Shown here one piece after another: positions 4,646-47,113 of a DNA stretch of 51,268 nt. Source of the stretch: a virus; IMG/VR virus record IMGVR_UViG_3300031753_000297, positions 1 through 51,268 of that record; one strand, given 5' to 3'. The notes beneath the pieces are model-generated. The model was not told where the DNA came from. It searched no databases and was given only the letters and a program-made list of their open reading frames with translations. Positions within the stretch are counted from its first letter, which is position 1. Each line of letters begins with the position of its first letter. The position numbers were made by a program, and so were the translations under genes.

Positions 4646-5932
4646 ATGCCCAGCAAGGGTGGAAGTCGAGAGTCTCAGGGTCGAATAAGCAGTGCAGCGG
4701 TCGGTCCAGCTGCAACCGTCCTCCAGGCCGTCGTCGGCACTGCTCGGGCGGTCGCCATTGAGGCTTCAAGTCCGGCAGGGAACCTCGATGCCGTTCCTGT
4801 CGGCGCTCTGGTTGACGATGACCCGCCAGTCGATAGCCCGGCCTGGGTTGAGCTCTACGCCTCAGCGCTGGCACAGTATCGCGAACAGCGCGAGCAAACG
4901 GAGCGAGAACAGGAGCGATCCCAGCAGCTCTGGGACGAGTTCCTCCGGCTCCAGGGCCAGAACGTCCCCGAAGGGGAGCGATCACTGGTCACCAACGAAG
5001 CCCTGCATCGGGAGCTCAAGCGACTGGCGATGACCGCGGAAGCTGCAAGCTACGAGCGCGAGAACGTGATTGGTGATCCGAACCAGACCTTCGGGGTCGA
5101 GATCGAGTTCGATGGCGGCAACCCCAACGCCGTGGCGCGTGCGTTGCATGAAGCCGGTTTAGCCTCGAGCGCACGTCAGGAGCCGTATCACTTCAGTAGT
5201 CGCGTTCCGGGCAAATGGACGGTGGAGCACGACGCGACAGTGGCGGGCGAGGTGGTCAGTCCGATTCTGCAGGACACGCCGGAGACCTGGGCGCAGCTCG
5301 AACGTGTGTGTCAGATCCTGCAGGCTCAGGGAGCGCGCGCGAGCGGCCGGACGGGCGGCCACGTCCACGTCGGGGTCGACTCGGCAGGCATGGACCACGA
5401 CGTGAACAAGTTCCGCCGTGTGGCTCGCGTATGCGCCTGGGCCGAGGACCTCATGTACCGGCTGGCCGCAGCAACCGGTCAGCGTGGACGCAGTCACCGC
5501 GGAAGCACCAACGGCTATCGCTGGTGCGGCCCCATGGGCTCGGGACAATTTGAGGAGGTGCAAGGCCTCAGCGACCTGGCCAACCGGGTCGGCAGCAGTC
5601 ACTCGGTCGGTCTCAACTTCGGCAACATCCTCGAACGCAACCGGACCATCGAGTACCGCTATTTCGACTCGAGCCTGGATCCCGCTCGCTTGCAAGCGAA
5701 CATCAAGCTGGCCTGCTGGGTCACCAAGCGTGCGGCGGAACTACCCGACACCGCGATTCCACGAGAACGGACACCGCTGGGTAGTCATCGGAGCCCTCGC
5801 GATCCCGACGATGGCGACCGGATGTTGCGACGCTTCGCCGACCTCATCTTTGTCCGCCCGAAGGACAAGCTGAAGCTGTATTGGGTCTACCAGCGCTCGG
5901 CCTGGCAGCGGACGCGAGCGAGGGCCGCCTGA
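4646..5932 (+). CDS. amidoligase (glutamine-synthetase fold, Amidoligase_2 type)
   Basis: A 428-residue protein that begins directly after the ATP-grasp stop. Residues 1-140 are Ala-rich then charged and helical. The catalytic part shows the signature order of the Amidoligase_2 family: FGVEIEF (149-155, two metal-binding Glu), WTVEHDATV (191-199) with GEVVSP (201-206), GGHVHVG (237-243), and TIEYRYFDS (334-342). Members form amide or peptide bonds using ATP. All key acidic and histidine residues are present, so it is probably active. Iyer and colleagues (2009) predicted that such enzymes work with ATP-grasp ligases to make peptide tags or metabolites. Its target is not evident from sequence. 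Confidence 0.8.
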   Translation: MPSKGGSRESQGRISSAAVGPAATVLQAVVGTARAVAIEASSPAGNLDAVPVGALVDDDPPVDSPAWVELYASALAQYREQREQTEREQERSQQLWDEFLRLQGQNVPEGERSLVTNEALHRELKRLAMTAEAASYERENVIGDPNQTFGVEIEFDGGNPNAVARALHEAGLASSARQEPYHFSSRVPGKWTVEHDATVAGEVVSPILQDTPETWAQLERVCQILQAQGARASGRTGGHVHVGVDSAGMDHDVNKFRRVARVCAWAEDLMYRLAAATGQRGRSHRGSTNGYRWCGPMGSGQFEEVQGLSDLANRVGSSHSVGLNFGNILERNRTIEYRYFDSSLDPARLQANIKLACWVTKRAAELPDTAIPRERTPLGSHRSPRDPDDGDRMLRRFADLIFVRPKDKLKLYWVYQRSAWQRTRARAA

Positions 5933-8563: not shown

Positions 8564-9304
8564 TTACGAGACGGCGACCGCGGGTACGACGGCCTTGGCG
8601 GTTTGCGGCAACTCGTCCCAAAGACGGCCGTCCAGTGTACGGCCGCCGGCCTTCGGCGTGCGCCCACCCCATTGCTTAAAGAAGAAGGCAACGCCACGGG
8701 CAATGCACTGATCCCGCACACCGCGAGCCCAAGCGAGGTCCATCGGCCTGGCGTGCGGCCCACTTTCTCCACCGACGATGACCCAGTGGATCCCGGTCAG
8801 GTCCAGCGTCACCGGGCCGAGCAGCGGCTCGACCGAAAGGAATCGCACGGCCGCCGGCACCTCTGCTAGGCGCTTCGCGCGAAATGCGAAGACCTGGTTC
8901 TCGACACTGACGCCCATCCAAACGTTCCGCGGCCAGTCCAGCTGCGGCGCCAGGCGCCGGACCCGATCGGCTCGCTTGGTGAGGATCTGATAGGTGTGCT
9001 GGGGTGTTGCAGCCATGACCTCGAACCCTTGACGGATCCAGTCGATCGGGACGTCTTCATGGAAGAGGTCGCTCATGCTATTGACGAAAATCCGGCGCGG
9101 CCGGCGCCACGACAGCGGCAGCGGCACGACCTCGGGATGGAACGTCAGCTCGAACCCGTTTCGATAGCGGTGTGCGCCGGTCGCCTTCAGACGCTTAGAG
9201 AGCGCCTCCGCATAGCAGTGATCGCAGCCAGGGCTGATGTGGCTGCAGCCGGTCAGAAAGTTCCAGGTCGCATCAGTCCACTCGATCGAGCTGTTCTCAG
9301 CCAC
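8564..9304 (-). CDS. DUF5131 / phage Gp37-Gp68 family three-Cys-motif protein
   Basis: A 246-residue protein. The N-terminus has SSIEWTDATWNFLTGC followed by SPGCDHCYAE, giving C20-x6-C27-x2-C30, the three-Cys motif of the Gp37/Gp68 (DUF5131) family, which recalls radical-SAM iron-sulfur motifs. Further family marks are FVNSMSDLFHEDVP, QILTKRADR and SVEPLLGP. It ends two bases from the TcmP stop, so the partner genes are tail to tail. Upstream it overlaps the ribbon-helix-helix gene by eight bases, forming a two-gene leftward operon. Confidence 0.85.
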   Translation of the reverse strand: MAENSSIEWTDATWNFLTGCSHISPGCDHCYAEALSKRLKATGAHRYRNGFELTFHPEVVPLPLSWRRPRRIFVNSMSDLFHEDVPIDWIRQGFEVMAATPQHTYQILTKRADRVRRLAPQLDWPRNVWMGVSVENQVFAFRAKRLAEVPAAVRFLSVEPLLGPVTLDLTGIHWVIVGGESGPHARPMDLAWARGVRDQCIARGVAFFFKQWGGRTPKAGGRTLDGRLWDELPQTAKAVVPAVAVS

Positions 9305-11828: not shown

Positions 11829-12430
11829 TTCTCGAAAAATACATCACTCAAATCGATAAAATTATCGGCTGCGAGTCGCAGCTCATCGCTCAGCCCTGCG
11901 TCGGGCTCTCGAAAAAAGAGGACGAAGACCAGCTTCCCAAGCCTTTTTACTTCCTCAATGAGCGGAACGTAATCGCCATCTCCGGCTATTAAGACTGCCG
12001 CGTCGTAGTTGCTTAGGAAGGCGTGGCTGAGTACGTCCTTGGTCAAGGCGATATCCACACCTTTTGACTTTCTGTCGCCGGTTCTCTGAAAGACATACGG
12101 GGTAAAGCCCAGTGTCCAGAGGTCATCTCTAATCTCCCTTAGCGTGGGAGGATCACCTCGAGCGCTGGTGTAAAAGTAGGCCCTTGTCGCGTACCTCCGG
12201 ACGCCGATGGCGCTTATATCGCTGAATCGAAAACCCTGCGTCGCGGGCCAGTCGGGAATCCAAACAAAGATGTCTGGCCTCCAGTAAGGTCCCTCTTTAA
12301 GAGCGTAGCCTCGGGCCTTAGCTACCGCCTGTGCCCGAATGGTGAAGTTTTCACCGTCAACGAATAGCATCCAGCGTAAGGCGGTAGGGTCATCCGGCTC
12401 CCTGATCGGAATAAAGGACTCCAGGGCCAT
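11789..12430 (-). CDS. NYN-domain (PIN-like) ribonuclease
   Basis: A 213-residue protein. FVDGENF (23-29), KSKGVDIALTKD (121-132) and LIAGDGDYVPLIEEVKRLGK (147-166) supply the Asp set of NYN domains (LabA/DUF88 type), which are metal-dependent RNases related to PIN domains. Such proteins occur in RNA processing and in defence or mobile-element islands. An internal ATG at 12370 would give MLFVDGENF and remains possible, because the longer start leaves just 28 bases to the divergent integrase gene. Confidence 0.8.
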   Translation of the reverse strand: MALESFIPIREPDDPTALRWMLFVDGENFTIRAQAVAKARGYALKEGPYWRPDIFVWIPDWPATQGFRFSDISAIGVRRYATRAYFYTSARGDPPTLREIRDDLWTLGFTPYVFQRTGDRKSKGVDIALTKDVLSHAFLSNYDAAVLIAGDGDYVPLIEEVKRLGKLVFVLFFREPDAGLSDELRLAADNFIDLSDVFFEKWTTLEGAGGPLL

Positions 12431-12458
12431 TCCATGTGTGGTATATCAAACGCCGGCA

Positions 12459-13415
12459 ATGCCAGAAGGGAAGTTGCTTGCTCCGCCGAGCGGCCAAGGC
12501 TTGGCGCGGCTAGCCGAGGAATGGACCGATTGGCTCCGCAAGAAATACAAAGCCTCCACAATGAGGGATTATCGCTTCTGGCTCGACGACTTCCTACGAT
12601 ATCTTCGACCGCTTCAGGTCACCGACTCTCGCGCCCTGACCCGTCGCCACGTTGAAGGGTGGCAGGATCAATTGACGATGCGCATGCTCAGTCAAGCAAC
12701 GCGCAGTTTGGGCACGACCTCGATTAAGCGGTTCCTCTTATGGGCGGAACGCAAGGGCGTACCTTTTGGCGATCCCAATCTCTTCCTTAACGTCGCAACC
12801 GTTCCGGTACCCGACCGTTATCCACACCCATTGCCGGATGAGGACCTGAATAAGCTTCTCCAGTATTTCAAGTCGCAGCCCAACACCCAAATCGCGTTGC
12901 GAAACCGGGCCCTCTTTGATGCATTGCTAGCGAGTGGGGCCAAAATAACGGACATGCTGGCGCTAAACCGAAGGGATTTGAGCCGCATTACAAGCGTCAG
13001 GCAAGCCGGGCGTCGAACCATCGCGGTTCCGCCCAGTGTTGCGTTTGAAATCGCGGAGTATTTAGACAAACGGACTGACGACAATCCGGCACTGTGGATT
13101 ACAAACCACCCGCCGACGATTCGCCGCCTTGCACCTGCGGGCGTCCTTAAAATCTGGGAGCGGACTGCTGACGCCATCGGAATCCGTCGCTTTACTTCCC
13201 ATCAGTTGCGCGACACGAATACTCTCAAACTAATGGAAGCGGGTGTCCAGCTATCCGTGATTGCCGCGCATCGTGGCAATAAAGAAATCGAACCGCTAAG
13301 AAAGTACGTGCAATTGATCGCTCAGCGCCGTCAGGAAGCGCTCGATGCCATCGAACAGGTCATAGCTGGGCGCAGTAGTAAGACTAAAAAGAAAAATCGG
13401 CCCACCAGCCACTGA
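12459..13415 (+). CDS. tyrosine recombinase, catalytic Arg replaced by Lys
   Basis: A 318-residue protein with an N-terminal SAM-like core-binding domain (about 15-100) and a C-terminal catalytic domain. Catalytic residues visible are H248 and R251 (SHQLRDT), H271 (AAHRGN) and Y283 (RKYVQL). The first arginine of the family box is a lysine: ASGAKITDML, K162. This substitution usually weakens or abolishes recombination, so the enzyme may be degenerate or a divergent subtype. It is divergent from the NYN gene and converges on the second integrase. Confidence 0.75.
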   Translation: MPEGKLLAPPSGQGLARLAEEWTDWLRKKYKASTMRDYRFWLDDFLRYLRPLQVTDSRALTRRHVEGWQDQLTMRMLSQATRSLGTTSIKRFLLWAERKGVPFGDPNLFLNVATVPVPDRYPHPLPDEDLNKLLQYFKSQPNTQIALRNRALFDALLASGAKITDMLALNRRDLSRITSVRQAGRRTIAVPPSVAFEIAEYLDKRTDDNPALWITNHPPTIRRLAPAGVLKIWERTADAIGIRRFTSHQLRDTNTLKLMEAGVQLSVIAAHRGNKEIEPLRKYVQLIAQRRQEALDAIEQVIAGRSSKTKKKNRPTSH

Positions 13416-13591: not shown

Positions 13592-14617
13592 TCAGGCTGC
13601 TGAGTCGAAGAAGCGGTCCCATCCGCGGATCAGCTCGGCTTTTCCGAAGTGGACATAACGAGAAACCATGCTGAGGGTGGTGTGTCCGAGGACGCGTTGA
13701 AGTCGGAGCAGATCCATCCCACCCGCGAGCGCCCTCGTCGCGAACGTGTGCCGAAACGTGTGTGGTGACACCCGGCCTGGCTTGATGCCTGCCCGCTGGC
13801 CTAGGCGCCGGATCATCAGCTGGATTGCAGATGGCCGCAAGACTTGCCGGTCCTCCTGGCCGAACCCAGACCGCTCGGTAACGAACAGAGCAAGGCACGA
13901 CGTGGTTGGACGCTCGTGGGTCACGTAGCGTCGAAGCTTGCGAGCCAAGACGGTCGTCAAGGGAACGGCACGCTGCTTGTTCCCTTTGCCAGCCCGCACA
14001 TCCAAATAGGGGCCATCAGGATGGTCCAGCCGAAAATCTCGGACCTCGAGGCCACATAGTTCGGAAACGCGCAGGCCGGTGCCGAGCAGGACCTCGATGA
14101 TGAGCCGGTCGCGGGAGCTTGCCAGGCCGAGCATGGCATCGATCTCGGCCGTAGTGAAGACACGCGCTTCGCGAACCGGCTCGCGGGGCGAGGGCAGCCG
14201 TCCGATCCCGCGATCGGGTGAGTAGCCTTCGGACACGCACCAGCGATAGAAGGCACGCAGGACCCGGTGGTAGGCGTGTAGGGACGCAGGAGTCAGCGGG
14301 GTCCACTCGCTGCTGACCTTGCCGTCGAAGCGATGCCGGGGCCGGCGGCCGTCACGCTGGAGCTGGTCGCGCAGCTCGCGAATGTGCACGCGTTGGATCT
14401 GGTCGACGGTGCGAATGCCTTGGCGGGTCAGCGCCGGCAGGATGCGCCCCTGAAAGAGGTCGCGGTACCAGTCGATGGTGGTCTGACTGCGGTTGCTCAG
14501 CCGCAGCTCGGAAAGCCAGTCCCGTAAGGCAAGCTCGAGGGGCATGCCGCCCCCGCCGCTGGTTGAAGGATCGCCGACGGCGCTAGAAGCGGACGAAACG
14601 CGGGGAGTCGAAGCCAT
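13592..14617 (-). CDS. int: tyrosine integrase of the phage
   Basis: A 341-residue protein from the ATG at 14617; residues of the longer open frame before it lie in the attachment-site region and were excluded. N-terminal core-binding domain at about 27-130. The catalytic set is complete: R183 (GTGLRVSEL), K211 (AGKGNKQR), H286 and R289 (HTFRH), H312 (LGHTTLS), Y321 (RYVHF). The tRNA-Lys 3' half begins 139 bases upstream of its start, the usual int-att arrangement. It catalyses site-specific integration of the phage. Confidence 0.9.
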   Translation of the reverse strand: MASTPRVSSASSAVGDPSTSGGGGMPLELALRDWLSELRLSNRSQTTIDWYRDLFQGRILPALTRQGIRTVDQIQRVHIRELRDQLQRDGRRPRHRFDGKVSSEWTPLTPASLHAYHRVLRAFYRWCVSEGYSPDRGIGRLPSPREPVREARVFTTAEIDAMLGLASSRDRLIIEVLLGTGLRVSELCGLEVRDFRLDHPDGPYLDVRAGKGNKQRAVPLTTVLARKLRRYVTHERPTTSCLALFVTERSGFGQEDRQVLRPSAIQLMIRRLGQRAGIKPGRVSPHTFRHTFATRALAGGMDLLRLQRVLGHTTLSMVSRYVHFGKAELIRGWDRFFDSAA

Positions 14618-14755
14618 GGATAGATCACCCTTTTGCACTTTTGCAATCTTGTAGATCACTTGACTTCGACCATTTTGGCCGCGGTTTCGGGGTTTGTGTG
14701 CGGGACGAAAGTGGACCGAAACCGAATTGAAAACCGGGGGAAAACGGAGAGGAAG

Positions 14756-14797
14756 TGCCTGCACCAGGATTCGAACCCGGGACCAACTGATTAAGAG
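14756..14797 (-). tRNA. 3' half of tRNA-Lys(CTT), phage attachment-site core
   Basis: Read on the minus strand, 42 bases match tRNA positions 32-73: anticodon loop CTCTTAA (anticodon CTT), TCAGT, variable loop TGGTC, T stem CCGGG and CCTGG around TTCGAAT, acceptor strand TGCAGGC and discriminator A. The T stem pairs. The bases before the anticodon loop (AACAC) cannot pair with TCAGT, and no matching acceptor 5' strand exists, so the 5' half is missing. No CCA is encoded. Integrases commonly use exactly this 3' portion of tRNA genes as att core. Confidence 0.8.
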
Positions 14798-16539: not shown

Positions 16540-16700
16540 AGAGCGATGCCACGCAGCAGCCCAAGGCCGAGATCCTCCAGGGATCGATATGCATCGTGAC
16601 GGTCGACCAGGAGAGCTCGATTGTGACGATGACGCTTCAGCCACTCGGCTCCGCGGAGCGCTTCACGTTTGCCCTCGTCGGAAAGGCGGAGATCCCATGA
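16536..16700 (+). CDS. small hypothetical protein
   Basis: A 54-residue protein starting MKSDATQQPKAEILQ, mostly beta-like, overlapping both neighbours by four bases. No recognised family. Supported by the unbroken ATGA overlap chain in which it sits. Confidence 0.5.
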   Translation: MKSDATQQPKAEILQGSICIVTVDQESSIVTMTLQPLGSAERFTFALVGKAEIP

Positions 16701-18115
16701 GCGCGGCCGTCGCGAACGAGCTCCGGATGATGGCCATCAAGGACATCACGCCGGCGAAGGACAACCCGCGCCGCGACGTCGGCGACGTCACGGAGCTGGC
16801 GGCCTCGATCAAGTCGGCCGGGATCCTCGAGCCATTGATCGTGACCATCGAGCCCAAGGCGACGTTCCAGCCAAGGAATGGCGGCGGCCCCGTCACGATG
16901 CACGAGGCCCGTCACCTGCTGGTCATCGGCCACCGCCGACTCGCGGCGGCGAAGCTCGCCGGCCTGACCGAGGTCCCGGTCGTCGTCCGGACGCTGAGCG
17001 AGAGCGAGCGGATCGAGGCGATGCTCATCGAGAACCTGCAGCGCACCGACCTGGCGCCCCTCGAGGAAGCCCAATCATTCAAGCGCTTGCTCGACATGGG
17101 TTGCAGCCAGCACAAGCTTGCCGAGCGGATCGGCCGGTCCCAGTCCCACATCTCCAAGCGCCTCGCACTGCTGGAGCTGCCCGACGTCGCGAAGAAGGCA
17201 CTCGATTCCGGCGGAATCACGCTGCCCGATGCCTACGAGCTGACCAAGCTCGCCGCGCATCCGGAGCGGGTCAAGAAGGCGATCGCCGAGCGGCATCGGA
17301 ACGGCTACTACCGCGACATGAACCAGGTCGTCGAGCAGGAGCTCCTGCTCCAGCAGCAGGAGGACCGCGGCGCGAAGGTCCGCCGCCAACTCGAGGCCGA
17401 GGGCGTCAAGCTCGTGCCGGCTCCGCGCGACATCTGGAATCCACCGGCCGGCACGCAATTCCTCGGCAGTCCCGGCGAGTACGGGCGCGTGGGCGTCACC
17501 GTCGACGCGCACAAGAAGTTGCCGTGCCATGCCGCCTTTATCGGCTCCGATGGCAAGGCGCGGTGGATCTGTACCGATCCGAAAGTTCACGCCTCTCCCA
17601 AAGAGAAGGCGGCGCTGACCCGCGAGTTGACGGAGCGGCAACGCCAGGTCGCGGACAAGAAGCTCGAGCGCGAGGCGCAGCGTGAGCGCGCCTCGTTTCT
17701 CGAGAAGTTCGCACAGCGCCGTCCGGCCAAGACGCACGTCGCCCATGCCATCCAGGTCCTCATTCAGGCCCAGTCGGCGAACGATGCCTGCCATACGGCC
17801 AAGGTTCTCGGACTCGAGCCGGCGATCGTCAAGACGAAGTACTTCACCGGTCGCGACTATCACAAGCCGCTGCTGAAGCTCGCCACGAAGAAGGGCGGCC
17901 TCGAGAAGGTGCTGGTCGCGATGGCTCTCGCGCGCGGCGAGGAGAGTTGCAGCTACAGCTACATGGCGGGCCAGGTGGGCCTCCTCCACTACGGCTTCAT
18001 CAAGAAGGTCGGCTACGAGCCCAACAGCTGGGAGCGCCGCTCGGCCAAAAAGATCAAGTCCGATGCCGCGGACGAGCGCGAAATGGACCTCGAGGAAATC
18101 GAGGATGCCGGATGA
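16697..18115 (+). CDS. ParB/KorB-like DNA-binding protein
   Basis: A 472-residue protein. The ParB N-terminal domain spans about 11-120, with GHRRLAAAKLAG (78-89) and ENLQRTDLAPLEEA (112-125). A clear helix-turn-helix follows: SQHKLAERIGRSQSHISKRL (137-156), as in ParB and KorB. The segment from about 230 onward, including a charged coiled-coil (330-360) and a C-terminal domain, is not recognised. In phages such proteins partition the prophage plasmid or bind dispersed operators. One copy of the GATTCCG palindrome family lies in its own coding sequence at 17204, so it is the leading candidate to bind that family; this is inference. Confidence 0.8.
   Translation: MSAAVANELRMMAIKDITPAKDNPRRDVGDVTELAASIKSAGILEPLIVTIEPKATFQPRNGGGPVTMHEARHLLVIGHRRLAAAKLAGLTEVPVVVRTLSESERIEAMLIENLQRTDLAPLEEAQSFKRLLDMGCSQHKLAERIGRSQSHISKRLALLELPDVAKKALDSGGITLPDAYELTKLAAHPERVKKAIAERHRNGYYRDMNQVVEQELLLQQQEDRGAKVRRQLEAEGVKLVPAPRDIWNPPAGTQFLGSPGEYGRVGVTVDAHKKLPCHAAFIGSDGKARWICTDPKVHASPKEKAALTRELTERQRQVADKKLEREAQRERASFLEKFAQRRPAKTHVAHAIQVLIQAQSANDACHTAKVLGLEPAIVKTKYFTGRDYHKPLLKLATKKGGLEKVLVAMALARGEESCSYSYMAGQVGLLHYGFIKKVGYEPNSWERRSAKKIKSDAADEREMDLEEIEDAG
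17204..17218. repeat. GATTCCG-N-CGGAATC palindrome, copy 1
   Basis: Exact GATTCCGGCGGAATC with a single central base. It lies within the ParB/KorB-like gene. One of about nine related sites found only in the phage half. Confidence 0.6.
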
Positions 18116-27538: not shown

Positions 27539-27729
27539 ACCCCAGTCACCGGCGTGAGCGCGTCGGTGCCAGCCTGCTGAGGGGCTCCGAGCAGCGATCC
27601 TGCAGCCGTCCTGCCATCGCCGCTGCAATGCCCCTCCTCATCGCCCTCGGGCCCTTCAACAGGCTGTACTGAGTAACATCGTTGCCGAGAGAGACTCCGA
27701 GTCGCAAAGGGCCAGGGCTTGAATTCAAG

Positions 27730-27966
27730 ATGAGCAGTCGGCAGCCGCCGCGACCAGTTGATTCCGACCGCCGTCGAAAGATCTTTGGTCCGGTCTACGG
27801 AGCCGCTGCGGCCCTCATCCTCGGCGTCCTGGTCATCGTTGGCTCGATCCTCGTCCCGGCGTCGGATCCGGTCCGCTTCATCGGCCTCCTGATCGCCATC
27901 CTTTTGATTAGCGGCGGCCTCGGCCGGCTGACCCGGCGGGCCTACGAAAGGCGGAAGAAGGGCTAG
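27730..27966 (+). CDS. small two-helix membrane protein
   Basis: A 78-residue protein from the ATG at 27730. Two membrane helices, GAAAALILGVLVIVGSILV and FIGLLIAILLISGGLG, sit between basic ends. It lies at the junction of early and late regions. A holin is possible by topology, but nothing confirms it. Confidence 0.5.
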   Translation: MSSRQPPRPVDSDRRRKIFGPVYGAAAALILGVLVIVGSILVPASDPVRFIGLLIAILLISGGLGRLTRRAYERRKKG

Positions 27967-28115: not shown

Positions 28116-28658
28116 ATGGCTGATGTCGTGGTGGTCGATCGGACCGGATCCGGTCTTCCAATTCTCATGAAGGACGTCGGCGGCGGCAACTTGGCGCCAT
28201 ACTCCGGACTCATTGACGGCGCCGGGCTCAGTCCCCAGATGACTCAAGCCGGCGACAGCATCGGCAACCGGATCGGCCTGACGGTCTTCGCCATTCTAGG
28301 GGCGGTCACCGGAACGAACATCCACGACCAGATCCGAGCCGTCAATGTCATCAAGAAAGTGCAGGCCGTCGCCGTGACCGCCGGCACACCCGTGAGCATC
28401 TGGACCCCGACGTCTGGAAAGAAGTTCCGCTTGATGGCCTGGCTGTTGAGCCTTTCCGTCGCCGGCAAGATCCTCTTCGAGGACGCGACTGGTGGCGGCA
28501 ACGAGTTCGCGCGGACCGCCTTGATGGCTGCCGGTGTTGGCGTGGCCTCCCCGCCGCTTGGGAACGGCTTTCTCTCGGCTGTCGCCAACAACCAACTCTT
28601 CATCGATGTCTCGGCGACGGGCAGCGTCGACGGCTTCGTTGCCGGCGTGGAGGAATAG
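28116..28658 (+). CDS. putative virion structural protein
   Basis: A 180-residue beta-rich protein with AGGAGG before its ATG. The core (VSIWTPTSGKKFRLMAWLLS through LSAVANNQLFIDVSATG) matches a type of structural or decoration protein seen in phages of GC-rich hosts. It opens the late region, upstream of the tail spike. Role in the virion not proven. Confidence 0.55.
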   Translation: MADVVVVDRTGSGLPILMKDVGGGNLAPYSGLIDGAGLSPQMTQAGDSIGNRIGLTVFAILGAVTGTNIHDQIRAVNVIKKVQAVAVTAGTPVSIWTPTSGKKFRLMAWLLSLSVAGKILFEDATGGGNEFARTALMAAGVGVASPPLGNGFLSAVANNQLFIDVSATGSVDGFVAGVEE

Positions 28659-28661
28659 AGA

Positions 28662-29009
28662 ATGGCTGAAGAGATCGAGATCACCGGCATCCACGACCTG
28701 GGCGATGACGTCCTCGAGGTCGAAGCGCTGGGACCCGTTTACGACGCGACGGACGCGGACGAGAAGCCGGTCAAGGCGCGTAATCGCTATACCGCCCGCG
28801 GCTGGGTGTCGGCGCTCACGAATCACTTTGACGCCGCCGAGCTCGACGCGGACCTGGTCGACGGAAAGGTCCTGCGCGGGCTGAAAGGCGAGCGCCATCC
28901 GGATGCGAAAGCGCGCGAGATGACTCCTGCCGAGAAGCGGGAGTACTGCCTGGGGTTGCTCCGCACGCAGAATCCGGAGCTCCGCGAGAAGAAGCCACTG
29001 GCGATCTAA
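28662..29009 (+). CDS. hypothetical protein of the spike block
   Basis: A 115-residue protein between the structural gene and the tail spike, all three separated by three bases. The first half is acidic and beta-like; the second half is helical (EMTPAEKREYCLGLLRTQ). No family recognised. It may be a chaperone or small virion protein. Confidence 0.5.
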   Translation: MAEEIEITGIHDLGDDVLEVEALGPVYDATDADEKPVKARNRYTARGWVSALTNHFDAAELDADLVDGKVLRGLKGERHPDAKAREMTPAEKREYCLGLLRTQNPELREKKPLAI

Positions 29010-29012
29010 CCG

Positions 29013-31052
29013 GTGGCCACCACAAAGGTCGTCACCGGGAAGGTCCTGTCGGCGGACGGCACGGCGCGAGCCAACGTCCTTGTGCGGGCGAAGCTCTCGC
29101 AAGCCGTCACGATCCCCGGAACTTCCGAGATCGTGCCGCTCGAGGTCCTCGCGACCACCGCGGCGGATGGCAGCTATAGCTTCTCCCTCTATTCGAACGG
29201 CGACCTAACGCCAGCCGGGACCTGGTACACGATCACCGAGGACGCGCATTCGGGAGACTTCTTCCAGTTCGCCGTCGTCGTTCCGCAGACCGCGGGACCG
29301 TTCCAGATGAGCAGTTTGGCAACCGTGACACCCGCCGCGCCGCCAGTCAGCGGCCACGTGTCAACGCTTCTGGTGGACGGCGCGTCGACGTTTTCCGGCC
29401 CTATGAGCCAGGGCGGCGTGGGAATCGCTGCGACCGGCGAGATCAGCGCCCTTGACCCGGCCTACGGCGCGAAGGGCGATGGTCAATGGCTAAGTGATGC
29501 GGCGATCACCAGCGGCCAGGCGGTCGTGAGCTCGCCGACGATCTCGACGGTGCTGAAGAACCCGCCGAAGATTGGCCAGCTCGTCAGCTTTGTCGGCGCT
29601 GGAGCTGCCGGCAAGCCGTTGCTGACAACCGTTCAGAGCGTAAATCTGGCCGCTGGCCAGATGACGCTAGTCGCGAACGCGCAAACGACGGTCGCCGCCA
29701 ACGGCGTTGTCTTTTTCGCGACGGACGATACGGCAGCCCTCAATGCCTGGATTAGCGATCTCATTTCGAAGAAAGCAAAAGGCATCCTGCCACGCCAGAA
29801 GTACGGCTACAGCGGCACGCTGGCATTAACCGACGAGCTGTATATCGAAGGCGCCGGCGTCACGGATCTCTTCGGATCAATTGCCAGCGGCGGCAACGCA
29901 GCATGGTTCCCGACCGCGGCACCGTACCTGGGCGGAACCGTACTCTGGCAGTTTGCGGCCGCGGCGGATGCGGTCTCCATGCCTGTGGTCGGGAAGACCG
30001 TAAAGCTCAAGGACTTCGGAGTCCTCTTCGCGAATCTTTTCAACGGCGCCGGCCACGGGTTCAATCAAACCCCGTCGCCGACCTATCTCGGCGCCCTCGA
30101 CACGGGCGTGACCTACGGCGAATTCGACAACCTAAAGGTCTTCGGCCACGACGGAAATCATTACGGCTTCGTCGTGAACAACCCACTCGTCAACACGTAC
30201 AAGAATCTTCAGAGCATCGGCGGCGGCGCGCTGAAGATCCACGGCGAAGGTCAGAACAACTACGGCAACAGCGAGTTCGCGCACTTCAACGGGCTGGTCA
30301 TCTCAGGCGGAACCGCTGATGCGATGAACATGACGGCGAGCGCCAAGAGCAAGTTGAATTTGCTCGTCTTCTTGCGGCCGGCGTTCGCGGTCTTCAATCC
30401 CGCAGCGCTGCCGGGCAATGTCGCGCCAAGCAACGCGCAGGCGATCTGGAATTCCGACGGCAACACGACTCAGGTCGTCACGATCGGCGAAGATCTGGAG
30501 TCGAACTGCGGCAGCGCGGTCACCCGTCCCGGCACGCTCTGGCAGCTTGGGAGCTACGGCGGCGGCGCCGACGTCCAGCTGCAGGGCCAGGCTGCAGCCA
30601 CGATCGTCTTCCGCATTTATTGCGATTCCGGCCAGACGGCCAACATCATGGAGGTCCACAACAAGAATCTCCAGACCGCCTTCTGGATCGCGGCTGCCGG
30701 CACGGTCGGTTACCTCAAGGACCTGCTTCGCAGCCAGCACAGCGTCAACCTCAATGGCGGGACGGTCAATGTCGACCCGACGACCGGAGAGCAACAGCTC
30801 TGTGCGCTGAGCGCGAGCACGACGATCCAGATTCCCAATGGCGCGGCCGGCCAGGAGATGATTCTGGAGATCACACACGACGGGACGGCGACCGTCTACA
30901 CGCTGACCTGGCCGGCAAACGTGAAGCTCGCCGGCGGCGCATTCGGCACCAATAAGGGCGGCACGAACGCTGCGAACAGCAAGGACGTCCTGGTGATCGC
31001 CAACGACGGCACGAACTGGGTCGAGAAGAGTCGGGCGATGAACCTCAGTTAA
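29013..31052 (+). CDS. tail spike / fibre with beta-helix domain
   Basis: A 679-residue protein (GTG start). Residues 1-90 form a carboxypeptidase-regulatory-like domain (KVLSADGTARANVLVRAKLS, TAADGSYSFSLYSNG), often the virion-anchoring part. From about 210 (FFATDDTAALNAWISDLI) the sequence has the signature of pectin-lyase-like right-handed beta-helix spikes, with repeated N/G turns. A C-terminal beta domain follows (about 580-679). It probably binds or cleaves a surface glycan. It sits upstream of the packaging genes, an uncommon place for a spike. Confidence 0.7.
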   Translation: MATTKVVTGKVLSADGTARANVLVRAKLSQAVTIPGTSEIVPLEVLATTAADGSYSFSLYSNGDLTPAGTWYTITEDAHSGDFFQFAVVVPQTAGPFQMSSLATVTPAAPPVSGHVSTLLVDGASTFSGPMSQGGVGIAATGEISALDPAYGAKGDGQWLSDAAITSGQAVVSSPTISTVLKNPPKIGQLVSFVGAGAAGKPLLTTVQSVNLAAGQMTLVANAQTTVAANGVVFFATDDTAALNAWISDLISKKAKGILPRQKYGYSGTLALTDELYIEGAGVTDLFGSIASGGNAAWFPTAAPYLGGTVLWQFAAAADAVSMPVVGKTVKLKDFGVLFANLFNGAGHGFNQTPSPTYLGALDTGVTYGEFDNLKVFGHDGNHYGFVVNNPLVNTYKNLQSIGGGALKIHGEGQNNYGNSEFAHFNGLVISGGTADAMNMTASAKSKLNLLVFLRPAFAVFNPAALPGNVAPSNAQAIWNSDGNTTQVVTIGEDLESNCGSAVTRPGTLWQLGSYGGGADVQLQGQAAATIVFRIYCDSGQTANIMEVHNKNLQTAFWIAAAGTVGYLKDLLRSQHSVNLNGGTVNVDPTTGEQQLCALSASTTIQIPNGAAGQEMILEITHDGTATVYTLTWPANVKLAGGAFGTNKGGTNAANSKDVLVIANDGTNWVEKSRAMNLS

Positions 31053-31123
31053 GGCGGGCGCTTCGACGGCACGCAGTTCGTGCCGATCCCGAACCGATTG
31101 ACTTAACATCGACGCGGGCGCCA

Positions 31124-32563
31124 ATGGTCGACCGCAAATTCCGTCCTGTGGCGATCGCGCTCCTAATCCTATTGGCGGTTGCCGTTGGCGTGACCATGAT
31201 CGACTTCGGCGCTCGCCTGGGCCTGCTAATCCTGGTGATCGGGATAACTCTGCTCATGAGCGTAGGCGCGATGGGGCGTCTCAGGTCCTCTCTCGGCGCG
31301 GGAATCGGCTTGGTTCAATATGCCGGGCTGTGGCTTCTCGGCGCGGCAATCCTGACGATCACGTTCAGCGGATTGCGGGTCACGACATTTCTCACCGTGT
31401 CAGACCTGATCCTGTTGATCACAGCGGCGGTTCTGCTGCTGGCGATTCTCGCCGACCGAACGCCGATCATCACGACTCCGAGTTGGCTTCTTATCGGCGG
31501 CATTGGCCTCCTGGTCGCAGGGTTCCTGGCGAGCTTTACGGCCATCGATCTCGCGCATGACGTCGTGGCATCGGGTGAGTTTGCAATCGCTCTGTTGGGC
31601 GTTCCGATCCTCCTGGCGCAAGGCACCGGCAACGCGACGAGGGTGCTTTTCATCGCTCGCCTCTGGCTTCTGTCGGCGTCGGTGAATGCCACCGTCGCGC
31701 TGACGGACCTGGCGCATCTCACTTCGATCGGCACCCTCCCCGCAGGCCGGCCGACTGGCTTGACATCACATCCGAACCACGTTGGCATGATCTGCGCGAT
31801 GGCAGTTCCGATCGCTCTGTATTTCCTGATCAACGCTCGTTCGATACTCTCCCGCGGGCTATATGCCGTCGCCCTCGCTCTCGTCAGCTTCGGCGCTCTG
31901 GCATCGGGCTCGAGAGCCGCAATCCTGGCGGCGTTTGCCGGCGCTATTTTGGTCCCGCTGCTTGGGCGGCGAATGTGGCGACCGGTGATAGGAATCGCAG
32001 CTGCAGCAGCGGTTCTTCTCTTCGCGACGTCGCTTGTCATCACGCCGGACCAATCTTCGCCATTGACAGCAAACCCGTTCATTGCGATTGAACGCCTAAC
32101 GCACGAAGCATCGATCTCAAACAGCGACACGGCCCGACTCGACTACTACCGCACCGCGATCAGCGACTTCATCTCTAATCCGCTGACGGGGACTGGGTTC
32201 GACCTCATCCGAGACGCTCACGATATTTACCTCCAACTGTTAGAGGCTGGCGGGATCTTGGCCTTTGTTTCATTCATGGTCTTCGCGTTCGGCGCTCTTC
32301 GCTTGGGCGTGCGGCTCACCGGGAGTGACGCACTCGAGGATCCAATTCGGAATCTGGCGGCAGCGCTGACCGCCTCGCTGGCGGTGTGGCTGCTGGGCAG
32401 CTTGGTGCAGAACTTCGTGTATGACCGGTTCCTCTACGTTCCCGTAGGGCTGCTGATCGGACTCAGCCAAATTACCGCAGGGAGGATCAACCATGGCGAA
32501 AGACAAGCAGGAGACAGCATCAGTGACGGAAGCGCCGGCAGCCCCGGATGGGCCGGTCGTTAA
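31124..32563 (+). CDS. O-antigen ligase/polymerase family membrane protein
   Basis: A 479-residue protein with about ten to twelve membrane helices. Family marks are HPNHVG (216-221), SGSRAA (261-266), NPLTGTGFD (352-360) and AHDIYLQLLEAGG (365-377), as in the Wzy/WaaL O-antigen ligase family. These enzymes join or polymerise glycan chains at the outer face of the membrane. Beside a tail spike it looks like a lysogenic conversion gene that changes the host surface. The last 24 residues, from 32493 on, read through the start of the next gene in another frame, as if the gene lost its own stop on insertion. Confidence 0.75.
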   Translation: MVDRKFRPVAIALLILLAVAVGVTMIDFGARLGLLILVIGITLLMSVGAMGRLRSSLGAGIGLVQYAGLWLLGAAILTITFSGLRVTTFLTVSDLILLITAAVLLLAILADRTPIITTPSWLLIGGIGLLVAGFLASFTAIDLAHDVVASGEFAIALLGVPILLAQGTGNATRVLFIARLWLLSASVNATVALTDLAHLTSIGTLPAGRPTGLTSHPNHVGMICAMAVPIALYFLINARSILSRGLYAVALALVSFGALASGSRAAILAAFAGAILVPLLGRRMWRPVIGIAAAAAVLLFATSLVITPDQSSPLTANPFIAIERLTHEASISNSDTARLDYYRTAISDFISNPLTGTGFDLIRDAHDIYLQLLEAGGILAFVSFMVFAFGALRLGVRLTGSDALEDPIRNLAAALTASLAVWLLGSLVQNFVYDRFLYVPVGLLIGLSQITAGRINHGERQAGDSISDGSAGSPGWAGR

Positions 32564-32795
32564 TGCCGCGCCCGTAACCGAAGAGCCATCACGCAAGGCG
32601 CTCGCCGATGGCGAATCGGTCGCCGACGTCCAGAGCCGGCTCAATGCGCTGATCGACAACCACACCAAGTGGATCGACACGCCACCGGCGGAAGGCGAAG
32701 ATGGCTACGACAGCTACGATCGCGATGCCCTGATCAAGGAACGCTCGATCGCACACAACGCCCTGATCGCCATGGGCGCGCCGCGCTCCGCCTAA
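32493..32795 (+). CDS. small hypothetical protein
   Basis: A 100-residue protein with GGGAGG before the ATG. The first 35 residues are low-complexity Ala/Pro/Glu; the rest is acidic and helical with EGEDGYDSYDRD. It overlaps the O-antigen ligase end by 71 bases. Structural or assembly role possible by position. Confidence 0.5.
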   Translation: MAKDKQETASVTEAPAAPDGPVVNAAPVTEEPSRKALADGESVADVQSRLNALIDNHTKWIDTPPAEGEDGYDSYDRDALIKERSIAHNALIAMGAPRSA

Positions 32796-32798
32796 ACG

Positions 32799-33017
32799 AT
32801 GGCCAAGGTGCGCCTCCGTCTTCCGGCGTGGAAATTCGTCCTACGCCTGGGCTTCTCAGGGCTGAAGGCGGATCTCGAAGTCAGGGCGAAGGTTGTGCCT
32901 GAGCCGACGTTGCGACAGCTTTACCTGGAGGCGTATCGAGAGATCCGCGGCGGCCCCAGGACGGGAACGAAACTACCGAAGCCGCCGGCGATGAGGCGCA
33001 CGAAATCCGGCGCCTAA
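32799..33017 (+). CDS. small basic hypothetical protein
   Basis: A 72-residue protein, strongly basic (MAKVRLRLPAWKFVLRLGF and a Lys/Arg-rich tail). No family recognised. Its 3' end overlaps the start-less HNH frame. Confidence 0.45.
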   Translation: MAKVRLRLPAWKFVLRLGFSGLKADLEVRAKVVPEPTLRQLYLEAYREIRGGPRTGTKLPKPPAMRRTKSGA

Positions 33018-33414
33018 TCAGCTCGCCGGTCCGTGCATCGTCAGGCCTTGCCCTGAATTAGCGCACCGCGGCGGGCGTTGCCGTCGGCATCTAGCTGAGG
33101 CAGAGCAGCGACACCGAGAAGCCACCGACTACTACCACTCGGCTGAGTGGCTTGCCCTCCGTGACCAGCAACTCGAGCGAGAGCCCTGGTGCAAGCGATG
33201 CGGCGGGATCGCCACGGTGGCCGACCATGTGAAGCCTCGTCGACAGGGCGGCACGGATACGCTCGACAATCTTCAATCACTCTGTGCTCGCTGCCACGAC
33301 AAGAAGCGGGCGGGGGAGGCCCGGATGCAAAAAGTTTCAAGCGATCGTCGGGGACCGGTCCCCGGCTTGGCTCAAACGCCCGCGAAATTAGCTCACCCGG
33401 GGGGTGGCCGGTAG
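32995..33414 (+). CDS. HNH endonuclease next to the terminase (no standard start)
   Basis: The frame from 32995 encodes RPCPELAHRGGRCRRH, then the HNH core: EPWCKRCGG, VADHVKPRRQGG, DNLQSLCARCHDKKRAGEA. The two Cys pairs and DH, N and H residues are complete. HNH proteins beside terminase genes are required for cos cleavage in many phages. There is no ATG, GTG or TTG in frame before the first Cys motif; ATG at 32991 is one frame away, so a frameshift or a non-canonical start is implied. Confidence 0.7.
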   Translation, partial: GARNPAPNQLAGPCIVRPCPELAHRGGRCRRHLAEAEQRHREATDYYHSAEWLALRDQQLEREPWCKRCGGIATVADHVKPRRQGGTDTLDNLQSLCARCHDKKRAGEARMQKVSSDRRGPVPGLAQTPAKLAHPGGGR

Positions 33415-33416
33415 GA

Positions 33417-33605
33417 ATGTGGCGCGTCGCGCTCGCTTTCGGGCTCCTGGTGGCCGCCGGCAGCGGCTATGAGACCTGGGCCCTCGCCTACCGACCGAAC
33501 TGGACGATCACCGAGCTCGTCAAGCGCTGGACGCACCTAGCCATCATCCTGGGCGCTGCCATTTTCATGCTCTTCGGCTACGCGCTGGGCGTCGGTGGTC
33601 GCTGA
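33417..33605 (+). CDS. small two-helix membrane protein
   Basis: A 62-residue protein from the ATG at 33417. Two hydrophobic helices, MWRVALAFGLLVAAGSGYET and LAIILGAAIFMLFGYALGV, separated by a short loop. It sits between HNH and the small terminase gene and ends in TGATG with it. Holin-like topology, function unknown. Confidence 0.5.
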   Translation: MWRVALAFGLLVAAGSGYETWALAYRPNWTITELVKRWTHLAIILGAAIFMLFGYALGVGGR

Positions 33606-34081
33606 TGCGCGGTCGCAAGCCGAAACCGGTCGAGCTCCGCGTCCTTCAGGGCAATCCTGGCCATCGACCGATCCCGACGAACACGCCGAAGCCGAAACCG
33701 AAGGCGCCGCCGTGTCCCGCCTTCCTCGATGACGTCGCGAAGACCGAGTGGAAGCGCGCCGGCCGCGAGCTCGAGCGGCTCGGCCTGCTGACCGGGCTCG
33801 ACATGGTTGCGTTCGCTGCCTACTGCCAGCTGTACTCGCGCTGGAAGGCCTGCGAGGATATCATCCGCGAGAAAGGAATAACCGACACCATCAGTCGGCT
33901 GGACAAGGAAGGTAATGAGGTCACGCTCTTCGATCAGACGAGGCCCGAGGTCGTGATCGCGCGGCAGTCGCTGCAGCTGATCAAGGTCTACTGCGCCGAA
34001 TTCGGCCTCACGCCCTCGAGTCGCGCTCGCATCACGCTTCCCGGTGCCAAGGACGAGGACCCGGACGGCGTACTGAGCTGA
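33605..34081 (+). CDS. terS: terminase small subunit (P27 type)
   Basis: A 158-residue protein. The opening MRGRKPKPVELRVLQGNPGH followed by a Pro/Lys-rich stretch is the signature of P27-family small terminases, which recognise the packaging site and load the large subunit. The central helical part (about 45-140) is complete. It directly precedes TerL with a three-base gap. Confidence 0.85.
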   Translation: MRGRKPKPVELRVLQGNPGHRPIPTNTPKPKPKAPPCPAFLDDVAKTEWKRAGRELERLGLLTGLDMVAFAAYCQLYSRWKACEDIIREKGITDTISRLDKEGNEVTLFDQTRPEVVIARQSLQLIKVYCAEFGLTPSSRARITLPGAKDEDPDGVLS

Positions 34082-34084
34082 GCC

Positions 34085-35713
34085 GTGCGGCGCTGGAAGC
34101 CGCGCAACGTCAAGGAGCGCGCCGCCGCCGATCGGGCAGTTACATTCATCAGCCGTTACCTTCGGCACACAAAGGGTGTCTGGGCGGGCGTGCCATTCGA
34201 TCTTCTTCCCTGGGAAGAGCAGGAGGTCGTTCGGCCGATCTTCGGCGGGCTCAGGCCCGACGGTGCCCGGCGCATCCGCATGGCCTGGGTCGAGGTAGCC
34301 AAGAAGTCTGGCAAGTCGGAAATTGCCGCGGCGATCGCTGCAACGTTGCTCTTCGCAGACGACGAGCGGATGGGCGAGATCTACGGAGCGGCGCGCGACC
34401 GCGACCAGGCCTCGATCGTCTTCAACGTGCTCGCCGAGATGGTGAAGAAATCACCAGCGCTCGCCGCCCGCGCGCAGATCATCCGGTCGACGAAGCGAAT
34501 CCTGGTCACCAAGGGCGCCTCGGCCGGGAGCTTCTATCAGGCCCTTGCGGCCGATAGCGATAGCGCCGATGGCGTTAATCCCTCCGGCATCATCTTCGAC
34601 GAGGTCCACCGGCAGCCTAATCGCCGGCTATGGGACGTCCTCAACGACAGCACCGCAGCGCGCCGGCAACCTCTGGTCTTCGCCATCACCACGGCCGGCT
34701 ACGACCGCGAGAGCCTGGCCTGGCAGGAGCATGAGTACGCGCGCAAGGTGCTCGAGGGGAACCTCGACGATCCGACGTTCTGGCCGGTCATTTATGCGGC
34801 CGCGCCCGACGATGACTTCCGGGATCCGAAGGCCTGGAAGAAGGCGAGTCCGAGTCTCGGTATCACCGTGCCGCTCGAGTTCTACGAGCAGCACGCCAAG
34901 CGGGCCGAGCAGGAGCCGGCCTACGAGAACACATTCCGTCGGTTCTTCCTGAATCAGTGGGTGGCCCAGGAAGAACGCTGGATGCCAATGGAGGCCTGGG
35001 ATAAGTCGGCCGGCATCTTGGGCGCGAAGGAGCTCGAAGCCCAGCTGGCGAACAACGGCTGCTTCGCCGCCCTGGACCTGTCGCAGCAACGCGACCTCAC
35101 GGCCCTCTCGCTGATCTTTCCTCCGTACAGCGATCCGCAGAGCGGCGAGTACCGGATGCTGACGAAGTTCTGGATCCCCGCGGAGAACGTCGAGGCCAGG
35201 ATCCGCCAGGACGGTGTGCCCTACGACGTCTGGATCCGCGAGGGTTGGATCAAGACCACGCCGGGCAACGTGCTTGACTACGCGACCATCGAACGCGACG
35301 TCCGCGCCGAAGGCATGCGCTACGGGATCCAGGAGATCGCCTTCGACCCGCACTTCGCCTGGCAGATGGCGCAGCAGCTCGCTGGCGCCGGCTACGTGAT
35401 GGTGCCCTTCCGCCAGGGCTTCGAGACGATGAGCACGCCGACGGCGGACCTGCTCTCGCTGGTGCGGGAGCGGCGCCTGCTGCACGGCGGCAACCCGGTC
35501 TTGCGCTGGATGGCGGACAACGTGGTCGTCGAGCAGGACGTCGGCGGCCGCTGGCGTCCATCGAAGCGCAAATCAACGAAACGCATCGACGGTATCGTCG
35601 CCGCGATCATGGCCCTCGATCGCGCGGAGCGGCATCTCTTCGGTGATGAGCAGGAGCCCGACGAGGACCTCCTGGTCTACGACGACCCGGTGACGATCGG
35701 GCCCGACTTCTGA
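34085..35713 (+). CDS. terL: terminase large subunit
   Basis: A 542-residue protein with GTG start. ATPase: Walker A-like VAKKSGKSE (71-79) and Walker B GIIFDEVH (168-175), with the family's usual divergent P-loop. Nuclease: CFAALDLSQQRDLTAL with D331, then FDPHFAW and a C-terminal RIDGIVAAIMALDRAE supply the acidic metal site. It drives DNA translocation into the prohead and cuts the concatemer. Phage HK97/P27-type arrangement with TerS and HNH. Confidence 0.9.
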   Translation: MRRWKPRNVKERAAADRAVTFISRYLRHTKGVWAGVPFDLLPWEEQEVVRPIFGGLRPDGARRIRMAWVEVAKKSGKSEIAAAIAATLLFADDERMGEIYGAARDRDQASIVFNVLAEMVKKSPALAARAQIIRSTKRILVTKGASAGSFYQALAADSDSADGVNPSGIIFDEVHRQPNRRLWDVLNDSTAARRQPLVFAITTAGYDRESLAWQEHEYARKVLEGNLDDPTFWPVIYAAAPDDDFRDPKAWKKASPSLGITVPLEFYEQHAKRAEQEPAYENTFRRFFLNQWVAQEERWMPMEAWDKSAGILGAKELEAQLANNGCFAALDLSQQRDLTALSLIFPPYSDPQSGEYRMLTKFWIPAENVEARIRQDGVPYDVWIREGWIKTTPGNVLDYATIERDVRAEGMRYGIQEIAFDPHFAWQMAQQLAGAGYVMVPFRQGFETMSTPTADLLSLVRERRLLHGGNPVLRWMADNVVVEQDVGGRWRPSKRKSTKRIDGIVAAIMALDRAERHLFGDEQEPDEDLLVYDDPVTIGPDF

Positions 35714-46108: not shown

Positions 46109-46354
46109 GTGGACGAAGCAACCGAGGCTCCGGCCTCTCCGACTGCCTATTACGACGTCGGGACGTGGCGCGGCCTGCCGCACTACGAGTGCCGGCGGTG
46201 CCCCGTCGACGCGCTCGACCAGGTCGCGATCGAGATGCACCTGATGCGCGATCACCCCGAGCTCTTCGAGAAGCCGAAGCCCCCACCCCCGAGCGAAAAC
46301 GACGGCGAACCGCCGGCGCCGATTCCGGCGGAATCATCCGAGCAGGAGGCCTAG
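46109..46354 (+). CDS. small protein with C2H2-like motif
   Basis: An 81-residue protein with GTG start. HYECRRCPVDALDQVAIEMH, then LMRDHPELFE, gives C-x2-C-x13-H-x4-H, a zinc-finger-like site. Its last 37 residues are repeated, with changes, at the end of the next gene product, because its 3' end belongs to a duplicated 402-bp unit. Confidence 0.6.
   Translation: MDEATEAPASPTAYYDVGTWRGLPHYECRRCPVDALDQVAIEMHLMRDHPELFEKPKPPPPSENDGEPPAPIPAESSEQEA
46321..46335. repeat. GATTCCG-N-CGGAATC palindrome, copy 8
   Basis: Exact GATTCCGGCGGAATC near the 3' end of the gene at 46109. It lies inside the duplicated unit. Confidence 0.6.
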
Positions 46355-46756
46355 ATGCCCCGTACAGTCCTGACAAAGACGCTCGTGCCCGTCGAGGTCG
46401 GCATCGTCGCCGGCACGGCGGTCACATGGACCGCGGCCGACGTCGGCAACCTCAATCAGTTCCCATTGACCGGGACCGAGATCGTGATCGCCTGGAACAC
46501 TGATGGCGCCGGCGCGCACAACGTCACGATCACCTCGGTCGGCGACGCCAAGGGTCGGAAGGGCGATATCACGACCGACAGCGTCCCGACCAACGGGTTC
46601 AAGGTTTACTGCCGGCACTCGGTCGATGCCTGGCGGCAGACCGTCATGCGTGATCACCCCGAGCTCTTCGAGACGCCAAAGCCCGCGCCCCAAAACGAAA
46701 ACGACGGCGAGCCGCCAGCGCCGATTCCGGCGGAATTATCCGAGCAGGAGGCCTAG
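46355..46756 (+). CDS. chimeric virion protein made by duplication
   Basis: A 133-residue protein. Residues 1-97 match the next gene product (EVGIVAGTAVTWTAADVGN, HNVTITSVGDAKGRKGDITT). Residues 98-133 (MRDHPELFETPKPAP...) instead match the end of the protein at 46109. So this gene is a fusion of the front of one gene with the back of another, exactly at the border of the tandem duplication. It lacks the last 20 residues of the next gene's product. The front is an Ig-like beta domain seen in phage structural proteins. Confidence 0.6.
   Translation: MPRTVLTKTLVPVEVGIVAGTAVTWTAADVGNLNQFPLTGTEIVIAWNTDGAGAHNVTITSVGDAKGRKGDITTDSVPTNGFKVYCRHSVDAWRQTVMRDHPELFETPKPAPQNENDGEPPAPIPAELSEQEA
46723..46737. 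repeat. GATTCCG-N-CGGAATC palindrome family, copy 9 (variant)
   Basis: GATTCCGGCGGAATT, duplicated copy of site 8 with one change in the outermost pair. Confidence 0.5.
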
Positions 46757-47113
46757 ATGCCCCGGACAACCCTCACCAAGACATCCGTGCCCACCGAGGT
46801 CGGCATTGTGGCCGGCACTGCGGTCACCTGGACCGCAGCCGATGTTGGCAACGGTAACCAGTTCCCATTGACCGGAACGGAGGTCGTCGTCGCCTGGAAT
46901 ACCGATGGCGCCGGCGCGCACAACGTCACGATCACCTCGGTCGGCGACGCCAAGGGTCGGAAGGGCGATATCACGACCGACAGCGTCCCGACCAACGGGT
47001 TCAAGGTTTACTGCCGGCACTCGGTCGATGCCTGGCGGCAGACCGACGGCAACCTCTACCTGTCGGCCGACAACGCCTTGATCAAGTTCGCGATCCTGCA
47101 GCTGCCCTTCTGA
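46757..47113 (+). CDS. virion structural protein (Ig-like)
   Basis: A 118-residue beta-rich protein; AHNVTITSVGDAKGRKGDIT and the C-terminal DGNLYLSADNALIKFAILQL form a compact domain. The intact parent of the chimeric gene upstream. It lies between the tail terminator and the tail tube gene. Confidence 0.65.
   Translation: MPRTTLTKTSVPTEVGIVAGTAVTWTAADVGNGNQFPLTGTEVVVAWNTDGAGAHNVTITSVGDAKGRKGDITTDSVPTNGFKVYCRHSVDAWRQTDGNLYLSADNALIKFAILQLPF

What the first reader, a model, noticed from the sequence alone, without database searches (positions are those of the whole stretch)
29013..32563. O-antigen ligase moron next to a tail spike
A ten-to-twelve-helix Wzy/WaaL-type ligase sits between the spike and packaging genes, with its C-terminus running into the next gene, as if inserted and deprived of its stop. 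Together with the beta-helix spike it suggests the phage binds a surface glycan and, as a prophage, changes it to exclude rivals. Such morons are well known in Gram-negative phages; in a GC-rich non-proteobacterial host it would be unusual.
Basis: partly seen in the sequence, partly recalled or inferred. Interest (0 to 1): 0.7.

Follow-up and report, generated by a model that had tools for sequence, protein, structure and literature searches.

The report
Phage sugar-coat enzyme beside tail spike
This virus of bacteria carries, right after the gene for the spike it probably uses to grip sugars on its host, a foreign-looking gene for a membrane enzyme of the kind that other phages use to change those sugars; the arrangement is already known from phages of Gram-negative bacteria, but this copy faces the same way as the virus-particle genes and the phage may well infect a different group of bacteria.

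Summary
ORF 31124-32563 (479 aa) is a polytopic Wzy_C protein (PF04932, E 1.5e-12). It sits directly after a beta-helix tail spike (29013-31052) and upstream of HNH-TerS-TerL. Its open frame runs 71 bp into the next gene, past the point (about 32480) where similarity to its best homologue fades. Three residues shown to be essential in phage D3 Wzy-beta align here as R324, R338 and H366; a fourth (R272) is replaced. Codon use is the most deviant of 27 window genes examined. The family was found in 1 of 41 related records (MinS1, beside its spike); many of the others are fragments, but it is evidently not a conserved structural gene. A phage with a related spike (L003) carries an acyltransferase-3 gene at the same place. 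Salmonella phage epsilon15 and Pseudomonas phage D3 have a like layout and convert their hosts' O-antigen, so this is a known kind of thing. What differs: here the gene is co-directional with the late genes, no inhibitor gene was identified, and the genome looks actinophage-like (host inferred, not shown). Polymerase versus ligase, substrate and any effect on superinfection remain untested. I judge it an ordinary but informative extension.

The parts
29013..31052 (+). Tail spike with right-handed beta-helix (pectate-lyase-like) core, about residues 239-490
31124..32563 (+). Wzy_C (O-antigen ligase / polysaccharide polymerase superfamily) membrane protein, 479 aa; R324, R338, H366 match essential residues of D3 Wzy-beta
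32480..32563 (+). Run-on tail of the Wzy frame across the ribosome-binding site and first codons of the next gene
31053..31106 (+). 17 codons open in the spike's frame after its stop, then a second stop; possible scar, resemblance to the spike C-terminus not significant (P 0.064)
32493..32795 (+). 100-aa hypothetical gene whose start lies inside the Wzy frame
   Evidence: no relative in 50,697 phage records
33058..33411 (+). HNH endonuclease upstream of TerS
33417..33605 (+). 62-aa membrane ORF, one strong TM segment by the threshold used; candidate inhibitor or holin, no family
33605..34081 (+). Terminase small subunit
34085..35713 (+). Terminase large subunit
13592..14764 (-). Tyrosine integrase (temperate lifestyle)
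14756..14797 (-). 3' half of a tRNA-Lys(CTT)-like sequence, probable attachment core (anticodon read by eye)
   Evidence: ARAGORN finds no complete tRNA

Best explanation
A temperate siphovirus-like phage binds, and probably cleaves, a host surface polysaccharide with its beta-helix spike. It carries an acquired Wzy_C glycan polymerase or ligase directly after the spike. Once made in the host, the enzyme would join lipid-linked glycan repeats with a different linkage, or attach them differently, using the periplasm-side Arg/Arg/His site, so that the surface glycan no longer fits the spike and related phages cannot adsorb. Shown: family, position, conserved catalytic-type residues, deviant codon use, sporadic occurrence. 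Inferred: activity, substrate, timing, exclusion.
For: Wzy_C match; R324/R338/H366 align with R254/R270/H300 of D3 Wzy-beta, all reported essential there (abstract and passages read); epsilon15 has the 'O-antigen ligase family' beta-polymerase immediately after its tailspike, D3 has wzy-beta three genes after its tail protein; MinS1, which shares portal, protease, capsid and a connector-region gene distantly, has an unannotated Wzy_C ORF beside its spike-position gene; L003, with a spike 37% identical in the core, has an acyltransferase-3 there; integrase and tRNA half; codon z -8.2 against -4.5 to +4.6 for the other 26 genes; 1 of 41 related records carries Wzy_C.
Against: The gene lies on the late-gene strand, unlike MinS1, L003, D3 and epsilon15, where the wzy or acyltransferase gene compared here is antisense to the spike (D3's own acetylase is co-directional); no promoter (sigma-70 type only) and no clear ribosome-binding site at 31124. 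No inhibitor gene was identified. Of six spike relatives only L003 has a glycan gene beside the spike; L004, L005, L006, BobBob and Jinkies do not, so the pairing is not general. Codon scores of other phage genes also scatter widely.
Confidence: 0.62

Rival explanations
1. Late-expressed receptor masking: transcribed with spike and head genes, the enzyme acts during lytic growth or induction, so that sibling virions do not inject into doomed cells or stick to debris, rather than in the quiescent lysogen.
For: Same strand as the late genes, packed between spike and terminase with an overlapping downstream gene; no own promoter found.
Against: Glycan turnover is slow compared with a lytic cycle (general knowledge); the two proven phage wzy genes looked at here are antisense to the spike; the promoter scan covers one promoter type only.
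Confidence: 0.2
2. It is a decaying hitchhiker: inserted by illegitimate recombination, lacking its own stop and ribosome-binding site, and not functional.
For: Run-on C-terminus, weak start context, odd codon use, 17-codon scar-like stretch before it.
Against: 479 codons open, three of four key residues kept, and 30% identity to MinS1 over 370 aligned positions.
Confidence: 0.12
3. It is an oligosaccharyltransferase that glycosylates proteins, for example the phage's own tail or host pilins, as some Wzy_C members do.
For: Wzy_C includes such enzymes (family knowledge); the best NCBIfam model is an O-glycosylation ligase model, but far under cut-off (35.9 versus 188.1 bits).
Against: Sub-threshold model; no acceptor gene seen; the active site would face away from cytoplasmic virion assembly (family knowledge).
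Confidence: 0.06

Closest known systems
Salmonella phage epsilon15 beta-polymerase (NP_848229) beside tailspike gp20
   Same: Wzy_C protein in a temperate phage immediately after the spike gene; R/R/H residues shared
   Different: Antisense to the late genes and paired with a 66-aa alpha-polymerase inhibitor with two TM segments; phage of Salmonella; no significant direct match to this protein
Pseudomonas phage D3 Wzy-beta with Iap and Oac
   Same: Wzy_C-type protein near the tail spike; same three essential residues
   Different: Antisense, three genes after the spike, with inhibitor and acetylase; function proven; D3 R272 is D340 here
Microcystis phage MinS1 unannotated Wzy_C ORF (L002:19590-21077)
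   Same: Closest phage homologue found (about 30%); convergent with the spike-position gene; distant head-module kinship
   Different: Opposite strand to the late genes; reported cyanobacterial hosts; its paper does not hold the term O-antigen (PMC8876498, term search)
Acinetobacter prophage Wzy (WzyPh1, Wzy1Ph, Wzy2Ph) with tailspike depolymerases
   Same: Prophage wzy plus spike, and the same exclusion hypothesis already in print (PMC9241936 abstract and two sections; PMC13228068 passages and discussion)
   Different: Capsule of a Gram-negative host; linkage change shown chemically
VarioGold VG_p25 (Variovorax phage)
   Same: Wzy_C moron-like gene in a temperate phage (PMC9658991, passages)
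   Different: After the lysis genes, minus strand, proteobacterial host

Membership tests
Wzy_C / O-antigen ligase superfamily (PF04932) | Score above the curated family cut-off | tested here: met
   47.9 versus 31.7 bits
Wzy_C / O-antigen ligase superfamily (PF04932) | Polytopic inner-membrane protein with a large loop before the last helices | tested here: met
   13 hydropathic segments, gap between residues 306 and 378 holding R324, R338, H366; AlphaFold model from a single sequence too poor to use (pLDDT 47.5)
Wzy_C / O-antigen ligase superfamily (PF04932) | Essential Arg/Arg/His of the catalytic loop | tested here: met
   R324, R338, H366 align with D3 R254, R270, H300; D3 R272 is D340 (T in MinS1, L in epsilon15); the alignment is between very divergent sequences
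Serotype-converting phage unit (D3/epsilon15 type) | Wzy gene beside or near the tail spike of a temperate phage | tested here: met
Serotype-converting phage unit (D3/epsilon15 type) | Wzy gene antisense to late genes (own expression in the lysogen) | tested here: not met
   plus strand like spike and terminase
Serotype-converting phage unit (D3/epsilon15 type) | Small membrane inhibitor of the host polymerase | tested here: inconclusive
   small TM ORFs at 27682-27966 and 33417-33605 without a family
Serotype-converting phage unit (D3/epsilon15 type) | Changed surface glycan and resistance to superinfection | not testable with these tools
   needs lysogens
WaaL ligase (as against Wzy polymerase) | Transfers finished polymer to lipid A core | not testable with these tools
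   sequence does not separate ligase from polymerase; no PDB sequence match

The most novel reading that the evidence does not exclude
Receptor-binding spike and receptor-remodelling enzyme travel as a matched, swappable pair far outside Proteobacteria, including into phages of Gram-positive hosts without LPS; in this phage the pair is co-transcribed with the virion genes, so the coat change is part of the lytic or induction programme rather than of quiet lysogeny.
Probability: 0.17. Interest if true: 0.65.

Novelty: new variant of a known kind. Interest (0 to 1): 0.42.

Why it matters
It extends the spike-plus-glycan-polymerase arrangement known from converting phages of Gram-negative hosts to an actinophage-like genome, with a different orientation. 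If active, it would point to surface-glycan conversion as a general superinfection strategy and would give a cloned spike/enzyme pair with which to find an unknown host's phage receptor.

Tried and rejected
Close relatives of the Wzy protein: none in viral contigs (with a two-sequence profile, 86 with the MinS1 protein), none in genome contigs, none in plasmids, one phage record of 50,697. Rarity cannot be read from this: the epsilon15 protein likewise finds only epsilon15-type records (3). The donor lineage was therefore not identified.

Host: portal in genome contigs found nothing. Kinship hints only: the portal matches 43 phage records, most of the named hosts Actinomycetota but the best hit archaeal Methanoculleus viruses; the capsid similar, with proteobacterial phages too; the terminase best to phages of Firmicutes; the Gp37/Gp68-like protein at 8564-9304 has its 12 listed best plasmid hits all in Actinomycetota at 61-64%, although Burkholderia records are the most numerous; the integrase was uninformative.

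Empty site: no relative keeps the gene after the Wzy gene, so insertion between spike and 32493 could not be shown. The 17-codon stretch after the spike stop resembles the spike's end only weakly (P 0.064). A profile of the MinS1, epsilon15 and D3 proteins ranks this ORF first of 508 frames but at E 0.055, under significance; the signal is MinS1's (6.7e-23), and neither epsilon15 nor D3 alone finds it. Rfam: nothing. The Wzy structure model was unusable and not searched. Kapi1 (passages) is not an example: its modifying gene was not found to be a wzy. Literature: searches for actinobacteriophage with O-antigen ligase, Gordonia phage with O-antigen and Gram-positive prophage wzy terms listed no paper that I recognised, from titles and abstract starts, as reporting such a gene in a non-proteobacterial phage; of those only PMC11856565 was opened, by term search.

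Full report
What is there. The window is a 51,268-base IMG/VR virus record. On the plus strand run two small genes (28116-28658, 28662-29009), a 679-aa spike (29013-31052), a 479-aa membrane protein (31124-32563), two short hypothetical genes (32493-32795, 32799-33017), an HNH endonuclease (33058-33411), a 62-aa membrane ORF (33417-33605), TerS, TerL, portal, protease and major capsid protein. The membrane protein matches Pfam Wzy_C over residues 250-384 above the curated cut-off (E 1.5e-12); PHROGs has no match.

Is it more than chance? The Pfam hit, a 30% identical homologue in Microcystis phage MinS1 (E 4e-13 in 50,697 records), and conservation at R324, R338 and H366 of residues reported essential in D3 Wzy-beta make it a real, probably functional gene. 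One of the four essential D3 residues (R272) is not kept here, in MinS1 or in epsilon15. A profile of the three other phage proteins together is not significant by itself (E 0.055); the signal is carried by MinS1.

Run-on end. Similarity to MinS1 fades near residue 452, coordinate about 32480, where the ribosome-binding site GGGAGG and start (32493) of the next gene lie. The remaining residues are read from the next gene in another frame.

Foreign origin. Codon use, with amino acids held fixed, gives z -8.2 for this gene; the other 26 window genes I picked range from -4.5 to +4.6. GC3 is 0.71 against 0.81 for the spike and 0.86 for TerL. Wzy_C occurs in 1 of 26 and 0 of 15 related records, that is 1 of 41, MinS1 alone; many records are short fragments, and the related records were chosen by spike, portal, terminase or the 28116 gene, most sharing only one gene with the window.

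The spike. Four viral contigs and two named phages carry relatives. Of the four contig relatives three match the pectate-lyase-like model PF12708, two over its cut-off; the window spike itself does not. A model from five sequences is confident only at about residues 239-490 and aligns to Sf6 tailspike and other depolymerases (best Z 22.0, rmsd 2.7, 232 residues); Foldseek alone gives no match at E<=0.001.

The slot. In L003 an acyltransferase-3 gene (E 1.3e-29) lies convergent with the related spike. In MinS1 the Wzy_C ORF lies convergent with the spike-position gene, which itself has no Pfam match. In epsilon15 the Wzy_C gene follows the tailspike, in D3 wzy-beta lies three genes on. The other five spike relatives (L004, L005, L006, BobBob, Jinkies) have no such neighbour; G003, the record of L005, has an acyltransferase-3 elsewhere. 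The window differs from those four examples in having the glycan gene on the spike's own strand.

Mechanism. Most likely an acquired glycan polymerase or ligase that changes the glycan the spike recognises. For Acinetobacter prophages carrying both a spike depolymerase and a Wzy this very idea is in print (PMC13228068, discussion read), and the chemistry of a prophage Wzy changing the linkage is shown (PMC9241936, abstract and two sections). D3 infection makes cells resistant to superinfection (PMC4815439, passages). Here expression, substrate and exclusion are untested; co-orientation with late genes leaves a lytic-phase role open.

Host. An integrase and a tRNA-Lys(CTT)-like 3' half (anticodon read by eye) indicate a temperate phage. 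Head genes are nearest to Methanoculleus viruses and then mostly to actinophages, the Gp37/Gp68-like protein to Actinomycetota plasmids, the terminase to Firmicutes phages. An actinobacterial or other non-proteobacterial high-GC host is my inference, not a result.

Verdict. Observation confirmed, interpretation partly supported; a known kind in a variant setting.

Noticed in passing
L003:11172-12290: Acyltransferase-3 gene convergent with a spike related to the window's spike: a different glycan-modifying enzyme in the same slot.
   Followed up: yes
L002:19590-21077: Unannotated Wzy_C ORF in Microcystis phage MinS1; the same genome has Lsr2- and DUF3263-type genes that I associate (from memory) with Actinobacteria, odd for a reported cyanophage.
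   Followed up: partly
46244-46945: Two tandem copies of a 300-nt stretch, 87% identical, over genes 46355 and 46757.
   Followed up: no
12339-13415: A second tyrosine-recombinase gene next to the integrase, in the window's lowest-GC stretch (0.57).
   Followed up: no
863-2245 and 16589-18115: Two ParB-like proteins in one phage genome.
   Followed up: no
4646-5932: Amidoligase_2 family protein (E 1.7e-19) in the left arm.
   Followed up: no
31053-31106: Seventeen codons open in frame after the spike stop, ending in a second stop; possible recombination scar.
   Followed up: partly
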